DNA of 64,000 bases from Persephonella sp. IF05-L8. Its GTDB lineage: Bacteria; Aquificota; Aquificia; Aquificales; Hydrogenothermaceae. This document shows, piece by piece, positions 48,522 to 50,661 of the stretch (positions are counted from its first letter, which is position 1; every line of letters begins with the position of its first letter). Location: contig NZ_JNLJ01000001.1 in NCBI RefSeq assembly GCF_000703045.1, positions 649,501-713,500 of the forward strand. The letters are read 5' to 3'. The translations under genes and the position numbers were made by a program. Below the pieces are notes generated by a model that was not told where the DNA came from, searched no databases, and was given only the letters and a program-made list of their open reading frames with translations.

Positions 48522-49026
48522 GCCTTACAAGGGAAAATATCCCAAAATACATCCTTCAGCCTTTATAGCCGAAAATGCAGTTATTATTGGAGATGTTGAG
48601 ATAGGAGAAGACTGTTCAATCTGGTATAACGTGGTAATCAGAGGTGACGTTAACTATATCAGGATTGGAGATAGAACAAACATACAGGACGGAACAATAA
48701 TCCATGTTGACCACAAAAAATATCCAACAATAATTGGAAAGGAAGTCACAGTAGGCCACAACGTTATGCTTCATGCCTGCACTATAGAAGACAGATGCTT
48801 GATAGGTATGTCTGCTACTGTGATGGATGGTGTGGTGGTAGGAAGGGAAAGTATAGTAGGAGCAGGGGCACTTGTTACCCCCGGCAAAAAAATAGAACCC
48901 CAATCCCTCTGGACGGGAGCACCTGCCAAGTTCAAAAGAAAACTCACAGAAGACGAATTAAAATGGCTTGAAAAATCCTATCAAAACTATATCATGTATA
49001 AAAATTCTTACCTAAATGAGTTATAA
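48508..49026 (+). CDS. Gamma-carbonic-anhydrase-like hexapeptide protein
   Basis: This 172-residue left-handed beta-helix protein contains the conserved zinc-type histidines (IIHVDHKKYP, VTVGHNVMLHACTI) and the YrdA/PaaY-like pattern (NVVIRGDVNYIRIGDRTNIQ, SATVMDGVVVGRESIVGAGALV). It is a trimeric gamma-carbonic-anhydrase-family member, though many relatives lack measurable activity. It follows the 39-residue membrane protein with an overlap. SD AGGAGAGG is 8 bases upstream of the ATG. Confidence 0.88.
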   Translation: MAIIKPYKGKYPKIHPSAFIAENAVIIGDVEIGEDCSIWYNVVIRGDVNYIRIGDRTNIQDGTIIHVDHKKYPTIIGKEVTVGHNVMLHACTIEDRCLIGMSATVMDGVVVGRESIVGAGALVTPGKKIEPQSLWTGAPAKFKRKLTEDELKWLEKSYQNYIMYKNSYLNEL

Positions 49027-49059
49027 TACTTTTCCCTAAAACTAAAAAAGAGGTTAGAA

Positions 49060-49365
49060 ATGACAAAGGCTGATATAGTCAACTGGATAATAGAGAATAA
49101 AAATGTTACTTTGCCAAAGAAAGATATTTCAGATGTAGTGAATAGAGTTTTTGAGCTAATAGCCGATGAAATAGTTAACGGTGAGGATGAACATAAAATC
49201 CAAATCTCAGGATTTGGAACATTTATAGTTAAGAAAAGAGCACCTAAAATAGGTAGAAATCCAAAAACAAAAGAAGAAAAGTTGATACCTGAAAGACTTG
49301 GTGTATCATTTAAAATGGGTAAAAAACTCCAAAAGGCTTTAAACGGAGAAAAAGTCGGAGCGTAG
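49060..49365 (+). CDS. hup: HU/IHF-family DNA-binding protein
   Basis: This 101-residue nucleoid protein has the HU/IHF fold: helical N-terminus (MTKADIVNWIIE), the DNA-binding beta arm (GFGTFIVKKRAPKIGRNPKTKEE) and a C-terminal helix. The stop codon TAG (49363-49365) occupies bases 8-10 of the downstream tRNA-Pro gene, so the coding sequence and the tRNA overlap by 10 bases. A TATAAT sits at 49022-49027 without an aligned -35. Confidence 0.93.
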   Translation: MTKADIVNWIIENKNVTLPKKDISDVVNRVFELIADEIVNGEDEHKIQISGFGTFIVKKRAPKIGRNPKTKEEKLIPERLGVSFKMGKKLQKALNGEKVGA

Positions 49366-49431
49366 CTCAGGCGGTAGAGCACTGGCATGGGGGGCCAGAG
49401 GTCGGCGGTTCGAGTCCGCTCGCTCCGACCA
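49356..49431 (+). tRNA. tRNA-Pro (GGG), overlapping the end of HU
   Basis: The acceptor stem pairs CGGAGCG (49356-49362) with CGCTCCG (49421-49427), with an encoded CCA (49429-49431). The anticodon loop ATGGGGG gives anticodon GGG, and the T arm contains GGTTCGAGTCC. The first ten bases lie inside the HU coding sequence. Confidence 0.96.
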
Positions 49432-49454: not shown

Positions 49455-49955
49455 ATGTATACAAATTTTCTGGAACAACTGATTTCTGAGTATTTCGAAT
49501 ACAACGGCTATTTTACAAAAAGTAATATAAAAATCAGAAAAAGAAATAGAGGGGGATACGACAGAGAAATAGATATTTTAGCCTATTGCCCAAAAAACGA
49601 CTATCTTTATCATATAGAAACTTCCTTTGCTCTTGTTGGATGGGAGAGGGAGATAGGAATATTTAAGAAAAAATTTGATATAAAAATAGTAGAATATGCG
49701 GATATTTTAGGATTAAATCCAGAAAGAATAAAGATTTTTAAAAGGGCAATAATACTGGAAGTTCCTAAGAAAGATAGAAAAAATAAAAAAATAGAATTCC
49801 AATCTAAAACAGATGCCAAACTTTTGTCGATAGGAGAGTTTATGGACATAGTTAAGTATAAATTGCAAAAGTTTAAGCCTATCAATAAAGCTGTCCCGCA
49901 AAATCTTCCTTTATTAAGGGCTATTCCATTTGTATTACATTCGGAAAGTTTATAA
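49455..49955 (+). CDS. Restriction-endonuclease-fold-like protein of unknown function
   Basis: This 166-residue protein has a conserved N-terminal FLEQLISEYFEYNGYFTKSN and the core GGYDREIDILAY followed by YHIETSFALVGWERE, the arrangement of a PD-(D/E)XK nuclease core (D then E-x-x); the lysine that should complete the motif is not where expected. It may be a degenerate nuclease-fold protein. It is 23 bases downstream of tRNA-Pro. A perfect hairpin terminator follows. Confidence 0.55.
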   Translation: MYTNFLEQLISEYFEYNGYFTKSNIKIRKRNRGGYDREIDILAYCPKNDYLYHIETSFALVGWEREIGIFKKKFDIKIVEYADILGLNPERIKIFKRAIILEVPKKDRKNKKIEFQSKTDAKLLSIGEFMDIVKYKLQKFKPINKAVPQNLPLLRAIPFVLHSESL

Positions 49956-49995: not shown

Positions 49996-50661
49996 TTAAA
50001 CAGCAATTCTTTTGTAAGCTTCTATTAATCTGCTTACTTCCTGACCTGTTAGTTCCTTCAGTTCCTTTTCTGTTCTTACCGTTTTGTTCAATATCTGCTT
50101 TGCCATTTTTGGAAACTCAACCTGTGTTTTCTTTGCCAGTGTTTTCAGATATTCAATCTGTTTTTCTGTTGGTTGTGTGGTTCTTGGTTCAGGGGCAGAT
50201 AATTTAAATTCTCCAAGTTCAAGCTCACCTCTGTAAGCTTTATTGCCAATTGAATAAAGGGAAAGACATTTTCCTATAGCATCTGTGATAGCCCCTTTAA
50301 TTGCATCTCCCGGAGTTACATTTTCACCACCACCAACCTGAACTTTCCTTATTCTGTCGTCTAAAATCCATAAGGAAACTTCTACCGTTGCCTGATAAAT
50401 CTTTTCTTTGTTGCCGCTTTTTCTTACAACCTCTTTTTCCTCAAGAGAGATGAGTTTGTAGTCATATCCCCAAATTGTTGTTACACTGTTCAGGGCATCA
50501 ATTAAAAATTGTGGGATATATCCTACAAGCTTTCTTCCCCTTGCTGGAACTTCCTGAACAGCCTTTTCCCCATATTTATCTAAAATCTCATTAACCCTCT
50601 TTGCAACCTCCTTAAGCTGTTTGTCTAATTTTTGTTTTTCTTCAGTGGAAAGTCTTTCCAT
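49996..50661 (-). CDS. Rad52-like single-strand annealing protein
   Basis: This 221-residue protein has features of the Rad52 superfamily of annealing proteins: GYIPQFLIDALNSVTTIWGY near residue 47, a beta region (YQATVEVSLWILDD), and the signature GGGENVTPGDAIKGAITDA (about 111-129) followed by the IGKCLSLYSIGNKAYRGEL helix, matching the GD.AIKGAVTDALKKAL pattern seen in Rad52/Rad22 family members. The C-terminal PTEKQIEYLKTLAKKTQVEF segment is the kind of helical tail found in phage-derived annealing proteins. No phage genes are nearby. AGGAGG precedes the ATG. Confidence 0.7.
   Translation of the reverse strand: MERLSTEEKQKLDKQLKEVAKRVNEILDKYGEKAVQEVPARGRKLVGYIPQFLIDALNSVTTIWGYDYKLISLEEKEVVRKSGNKEKIYQATVEVSLWILDDRIRKVQVGGGENVTPGDAIKGAITDAIGKCLSLYSIGNKAYRGELELGEFKLSAPEPRTTQPTEKQIEYLKTLAKKTQVEFPKMAKQILNKTVRTEKELKELTGQEVSRLIEAYKRIAV

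What the first reader, a model, noticed from the sequence alone, without database searches (positions are those of the whole stretch)
49354..49365. HU stop codon lies inside tRNA-Pro, so RNase P cleavage would make a non-stop HU mRNA
Seen: the last HU codons (GTC GGA GCG TAG) run into tRNA-Pro, whose first base is 49356; the TAG is bases 8-10 of the tRNA. If they share a transcript, 5' processing of the tRNA removes the stop codon. HU would come only from unprocessed transcripts or need ribosome rescue, tying HU level to tRNA processing. The overlap may have been maintained because TA at positions 8-9 is near-invariant in tRNAs.
Basis: partly seen in the sequence, partly recalled or inferred. 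Interest (0 to 1): 0.58.

Follow-up and report, generated by a model that had tools for sequence, protein, structure and literature searches.

The report
Gene borrows stop codon from tRNA
In this heat-loving bacterium the gene for a DNA-packaging protein ends inside the next gene, a transfer RNA, and its last part also seems to carry that tRNA's start signal; the overlap is real, but more likely a tolerated by-product of tight packing than a control switch.

Summary
The HU/IHF-family gene (49060-49365) ends in TAG at 49363-49365, bases 8-10 of tRNA-Pro(GGG) (49356-49431). A 5' tRNA cut would leave an HU message ending in GU with no stop.

The gene pair is old: 22 of 23 Hydrogenothermaceae genomes with this HU ortholog have tRNA-Pro(GGG) directly after it. 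The overlap itself occurs in only 5 of those 22, in two lineages; the other 17 stop 0-7 nt before the tRNA.

Its rare TTG leucine codon is fixed in 21 of 21 orthologs with leucine there, against about 5% usage elsewhere. The tRNA therefore probably has its own promoter.

HU is not special. In the same family nfo ends inside tRNA-Arg(CCG) in 20 of 22 readable junctions, and an Aquificaceae-like genome shows pnp, ispE and lpxK doing likewise.

Best reading: compact packing in which tRNA bases such as U8-A9-G10 catch genes that lost their own stop. It is tolerated because the tRNA has its own promoter and tmRNA/SmpB can clear non-stop ribosomes. HU control by tRNA processing remains possible but unproven.

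The parts
49022..49027 (+). TATAAT, probable -10 of the HU promoter, overlapping the stop of the upstream gene (ends 49026)
   Evidence: Sequence by eye; TTATAAT is kept at this place in many same-genus orthologs; no good -35 was identified
49060..49365 (+). HU/IHF-family gene, 101 aa, stop codon inside tRNA-Pro
49282..49309 (+). Promoter-like site TTGATA-N16-TATCAT inside the HU coding sequence, probable tRNA-Pro promoter (predicted start near 49316)
   Evidence: 10 of 12 consensus; synonymous conservation
49356..49431 (+). tRNA-Pro(GGG)
   Evidence: ARAGORN; RF00005
49363..49365 (+). TAG: HU stop codon and tRNA bases 8-10

Best explanation
An HU/IHF-family gene and tRNA-Pro(GGG) have been packed end to end since early in the Hydrogenothermaceae. 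In two lineages HU lost its own stop (with a 2-nt gap one base change is enough) and translation now runs 7 coding bases into the tRNA, where U8-A9-G10 ends it as UAG. The tRNA probably has its own promoter inside the HU coding sequence (inferred from conservation), so many RNase P cuts act on short leader transcripts that do not code HU. Transcripts from the HU promoter also run into the tRNA; ribosomes that finish before the cut make 101-aa HU, and those that reach a cut message stall after Lys98 with GU in the A site and are cleared by tmRNA/SmpB (established pathway, not shown here). The overlap is tolerated by-product, not a switch.
For: HU-tRNA-Pro adjacency in 22 of 23 family genomes with the ortholog, overlap in 5 of 22. 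G009 and G014 show the 2-nt-gap state from which one stop-losing change gives the window's frame. TTG fixed in 21 of 21 Leu sequences at the -35 place, 69 of 1414 Leu codons elsewhere; the only fixed one of 52 Leu columns. Synonymous resampling: observed site score 8.42 against 6.77 (sd 0.23); with one sequence per lineage the fraction reaching the observed mean is 0.0004. G021 lacks both the tRNA and the TTG. Same habit in nfo/tRNA-Arg(CCG), 20 of 22 readable junctions, and in lpxK, pnp and ispE of G025. tmRNA and SmpB present.
Against: G023, L045 and L047 keep the tRNA without the TTG site, and G019 scores only 7 of 12. The -10 is TATCTT in most genomes, a weak match. No expression data. Two other 4- or 6-fold codon columns (prfA col 297 Arg, nfo col 59 Thr) are also fixed. 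Support in the tree between the two overlap groups is weak, so one gain with later losses is not excluded.
Confidence: 0.6

Rival explanations
1. One reading: HU and tRNA-Pro share a transcript, RNase P removes the stop, and HU output is set by the race between ribosome and RNase P, with tmRNA tagging the losers. HU level thereby reports tRNA processing.
For: Geometry; no terminator-like site flagged between them on the + strand; RNase P RNA, tmRNA and SmpB present, RqcH and ArfB not found; overlap in two lineages.
Against: 17 of 22 orthologs keep a stop before the tRNA; a probable separate tRNA promoter; the genome has other HU/IHF paralogs; unrelated genes share the arrangement.
Confidence: 0.12
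2. Protection by translation: a ribosome terminating at or beside the tRNA keeps it unfolded, so translation of HU (and of the many family genes that end at a tRNA) delays tRNA maturation on that transcript. Control runs from translation to the tRNA, and would work with or without overlap.
For: The stop lies within 7 nt of the tRNA, or inside it, in all 22 paired family genomes, and prfA abuts tRNA-Arg(ACG) in 20 of 20 family loci, so a terminating ribosome would cover the tRNA 5' end in most (ribosome footprint recalled).
Against: No measurement; the probable internal promoter would supply tRNA apart from HU translation.
Confidence: 0.13
3. The conserved TTG...TATCTT is not a promoter but chance codon conservation or another signal, and the tRNA is made only from the HU transcript.
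For: Promoter-like matches are common by chance here, 8 found against 5.3 expected; G023, L045 and L047 lack it yet keep the tRNA.
Against: The -35 and -10 parts are both conserved, 16 nt apart, in the right direction, and TTG is the rarest Leu codon but fixed.
Confidence: 0.15

Closest known systems
selB-selC overlap: tRNA-Sec nested in, or partly overlapping, the selB gene (PMC8124441, abstract and passages read)
   Same: A bacterial protein gene runs into a same-strand tRNA; in some Dyella and Luteibacter the stop lies inside the tRNA; related strains keep a stop before it; repression by tRNA processing is proposed there.
   Different: Ordinary tRNA-Pro and tRNA-Arg, unrelated protein genes, stop mostly at tRNA bases 8-10 or in the D arm, and a probable tRNA promoter inside the protein gene.
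Animal mitochondrial tRNA punctuation (recalled)
   Same: tRNA excision defines mRNA 3' ends, and stop codons lie at or across the boundary.
   Different: There polyadenylation completes the stop; here the cut message would lack a stop and need rescue.
arfA of E. coli, made as a non-stop mRNA and controlled by tmRNA (recalled)
   Same: It would be the functional model if HU were set by stop removal and tmRNA.
   Different: Other nuclease or terminator, and ArfA is itself a rescue factor; no such control is shown here.

Membership tests
Bacterial protein gene / tRNA same-strand overlap (selB-selC kind) | Stop codon of the protein gene lies inside a downstream same-strand tRNA gene | tested here: met
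Bacterial protein gene / tRNA same-strand overlap (selB-selC kind) | Arrangement conserved in related genomes | tested here: met
   Overlap in 5 of 22 paired orthologs in two lineages; adjacency in 22 of 23
Bacterial protein gene / tRNA same-strand overlap (selB-selC kind) | tRNA processing lowers expression of the protein | not testable with these tools
   Only proposed for selB; no expression data here
tmRNA-controlled non-stop message (arfA kind) | tmRNA and SmpB present | tested here: met
tmRNA-controlled non-stop message (arfA kind) | Message loses its stop in the cell and the product is tagged | not testable with these tools
   Needs RNA end mapping and proteomics
sigma-70-type promoter inside a coding sequence | -35 and -10 hexamers at 16-18 nt conserved beyond coding need | tested here: met
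   absent in G023, L045 and L047, weak in G019
sigma-70-type promoter inside a coding sequence | Transcription starts there | not testable with these tools
   No transcript data

The most novel reading that the evidence does not exclude
In Aquificota several housekeeping genes (HU/IHF, nfo, pnp, ispE, lpxK) end inside tRNA genes, so a tRNA 5' cut on such a transcript makes a non-stop mRNA. Protein output is then set by a ribosome/RNase P race with tmRNA clearance, coupling protein synthesis to tRNA maturation across the phylum.
Probability: 0.12. Interest if true: 0.7.

Novelty: new member of a known kind. Interest (0 to 1): 0.42.

Why it matters
It gives cases with ordinary tRNAs, not only tRNA-Sec, in which one stretch of DNA is at once protein 3' end, stop codon and tRNA acceptor stem, with a probable tRNA promoter nearby in the same coding sequence. 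The nfo/tRNA-Arg pair, overlapped in 20 of 22 readable junctions of a family, is a natural test of whether RNase P creates non-stop messages that tmRNA must clear. It also suggests a simple rule: tRNA bases U8-A9-G10 act as a ready-made stop for a gene reading in that frame.

Tried and rejected
Rejected: (1) HU as the cell's only HU: 4 HU/IHF-family matches in the genome. (2) A sequencing error: the same junction is in G001, G006, G015 and G022. (3) A one-off: the overlap occurs in two lineages and the adjacency in 22 of 23. (4) Peptide-level selection on the tail: in nfo the overlap persists in different reading frames, with stops at ARAGORN positions 8, 16-17, 22-23 and 76, so the tail is probably dictated by the tRNA. 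(5) An ORF of 108 aa ending in tRNA-Val in G025 and one of 107 aa ending in tRNA-Gly in the HIMB114 record have no Pfam match; I do not count them as genes.

Led nowhere: paper searches for RNase P cutting of mRNA-tRNA transcripts with loss of the stop listed, as far as titles and abstract starts show, no bacterial case other than the selB paper; the library lacks most subscription journals. A conserved internal promoter was not seen at the end of prfA; for nfo the strongest signal is the tRNA itself, with some excess at alignment columns 272-276 that I did not resolve. ARAGORN did not call the tmRNA in L161; Infernal did. ArfA was not searched for.

Limits of counts: close HU orthologs of G016 and G020 were not found, only distant paralogs. 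nfo was found in 24 of 25 family genomes; the junction could not be read in G012 (piece not fetched) and G022 (contig end), leaving 22. The tRNA surveys skipped tRNAs with under 400 nt of upstream sequence and merged identical copies: 35 examined in G000 (39 matches), 32 in G025 (43 matches, 30 loci fetched), 30 in HIMB114 (32 matches, 30 loci fetched). ORFs there are mechanical, at least 90 aa. Codon tests used 25 HU sequences (23 genomes plus L045 and L047); resampling used 24 (G021 left out). Of the 80 loci, junctions were read in 14 (L035-L048); the rest were not examined, except that the genome of L103 served as the HIMB114 control.

Full report
What is there. The ORF 49060-49365 codes a 101-aa HU/IHF-family protein and ends GTC GGA GCG TAG. 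tRNA-Pro(GGG) spans 49356-49431. If the tRNA 5' end is cut, the upstream piece ends ...GGA GAA AAA GU, with no stop. No NCBIfam HU or IHF equivalog cut-off is passed, and the genome holds four HU/IHF-family matches.

The pair is old, the overlap is not universal. Of 25 genomes of the family (G000-G024), 23 have a close ortholog, and in 22 of these tRNA-Pro(GGG) directly follows on the same strand; only G021 lacks it. The stop is inside the tRNA in G000, G001, G006 (same genus as the window) and G015, G022 (another genus): 5 of 22. In the other 17 the stop lies 0-7 nt upstream, mostly TAA plus 2-3 nt. Two further named records, L045 and L047 (Hydrogenothermus sp. and a Hydrogenothermaceae bacterium), have gaps of 6 and 9 nt. 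Named records place the family as Hydrogenothermaceae and the closest relative as Persephonella. On a tree of three concatenated proteins the two overlap groups are separate, but the support between them is weak.

How the overlap could arise. In G009 the junction reads TAA GT|CGG AGC G and in G014 TAG TT|CGG. With a 2-nt gap, loss of the stop by one substitution makes the G009 frame read NNN GTC GGA GCG TAG, the state in the window. With a 3-nt gap the frame meets no stop at tRNA bases 8-10. This is inference from the sequences.

A promoter-like site inside HU. One search lists TTGATA-N16-TATCAT at 49282-49309 (10 of 12), but such matches are common by chance (8 found, 5.3 expected). Conservation makes it stand out. 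In 25 orthologs the Leu codon holding the -35 TTG is TTG in 21 of 21 sequences with Leu there, while TTG is 69 of 1414 Leu codons (4.9%) elsewhere in HU, nfo and prfA; of 52 Leu columns with at least 15 sequences it is the only fixed one, the next having identity 0.61. The codons of the -10 region, Ile-Ser-Phe, are also above expectation: 0.88 against 0.49, 0.69 against 0.35, 1.00 against 0.79. Synonymous resampling gives a mean site score of 6.77 (sd 0.23) against 8.42 observed; with one sequence per lineage (10 sequences) the fraction reaching the observed mean is 0.0004. The full resampling ignores relatedness. Against it: G023, L045 and L047 keep the tRNA but have no TTG; G019 scores 7; two other 4- or 6-fold codon columns, in prfA and nfo, are also fixed. 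G021, which lacks the tRNA, has GTT there. I read this as the tRNA-Pro promoter, with a start near 49316 and a leader of about 40 nt. Not shown by experiment.

HU is one case of several. Of 35 tRNAs examined in the window's genome, two have an ORF of at least 90 aa ending inside them (HU, and nfo inside tRNA-Arg(CCG)) and three have an ORF ending 0-3 nt before them: prfA, a peptidase-like protein and ispE (names for nfo, prfA and the peptidase-like protein, ispE recognised from its sequence, recalled). The nfo overlap is far more conserved than the HU one: the stop lies in the tRNA in 20 of 22 readable family junctions, in more than one reading frame, and G019 and G013 end 1 and 4 nt before it. 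In G008 the nfo frame runs through the whole tRNA (a draft genome, so a base error is possible). prfA abuts tRNA-Arg(ACG), at 0-19 nt, in 20 of 20 family loci and overlaps in none. In an Aquificaceae-like genome (G025, no RNase P RNA match) 32 tRNAs gave three overlaps with Pfam-supported genes: lpxK, pnp and a GHMP kinase that looks like ispE. Two of them, and nfo in G018, use TAG at tRNA bases 8-10 (for pnp, ARAGORN's position 9 counts one extra 5' base by my reading). The compact control genome HIMB114 gave no credible overlap among 30 tRNAs. One genome of each kind is a small sample.

Machinery. RNase P RNA is present in the window's genome and 22 other family genomes of 25, in line with PMC4227106 (passages). 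tmRNA is over the Rfam cut-off in 19 of 25 family genomes, the window's included, and SmpB is in the window's genome. The RF-1 domain search finds only two proteins, which fits RF1 and RF2 without ArfB, and NFACT_N (RqcH) is not found. tmRNA is thus the only known rescue route I could find; ArfA was not tested.

Most likely working. Ribosomes on an uncut message end at UAG in the tRNA and make the 101-aa protein. While a ribosome sits there the tRNA cannot fold, so translation and cutting exclude each other locally (inference). Messages cut first stall ribosomes after Lys98; tmRNA/SmpB should tag and clear them (established pathway, not shown here). Because the tRNA probably has its own promoter, tRNA supply need not draw on HU messages. 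Since most relatives keep a stop before the tRNA, stop removal is unlikely to be the purpose of the arrangement.

Novelty. The nearest precedent is the selB/tRNA-Sec overlap (PMC8124441, abstract and passages), which its abstract calls the first report of a tRNA gene nested inside a protein gene in its setting, and for which repression by tRNA processing is proposed. The present case is a new member of that kind with ordinary tRNAs. My paper searches listed no report of the HU or nfo cases, but the library is partial.

Noticed in passing
L143 (G000:C1:110518-111369, - strand): nfo (deoxyribonuclease IV) ends inside tRNA-Arg(CCG), stop at tRNA bases 16-18; an overlap is kept in 20 of 22 readable family junctions, in more than one frame. 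Better conserved than the HU case.
   Followed up: yes
L173 (genome G008): The nfo frame runs through the whole tRNA-Arg and stops at position 76, a nested tRNA like selB-selC; a draft-genome base error is not excluded.
   Followed up: no
L195-L214: prfA (release factor 1, which reads UAG) abuts tRNA-Arg(ACG) by 0-19 nt in 20 of 20 family loci.
   Followed up: partly
L232, L234, L244 (genome G025): lpxK, pnp and an ispE-like gene end inside tRNA-Lys(CTT), tRNA-Thr(CGT) and tRNA-Gln(TTG) in an Aquificaceae-like genome with no RNase P RNA match.
   Followed up: partly
window 49455-49955 (+): ORF of 166 aa with no Pfam match starts 23 nt after tRNA-Pro; the sequence after the tRNA differs in G001 and G006.
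   Followed up: no
window 49996-50661 (-): 221-aa ORF with a weak Rad52/22-family match (E 1.2e-05, over the Pfam cut-off).
   Followed up: no
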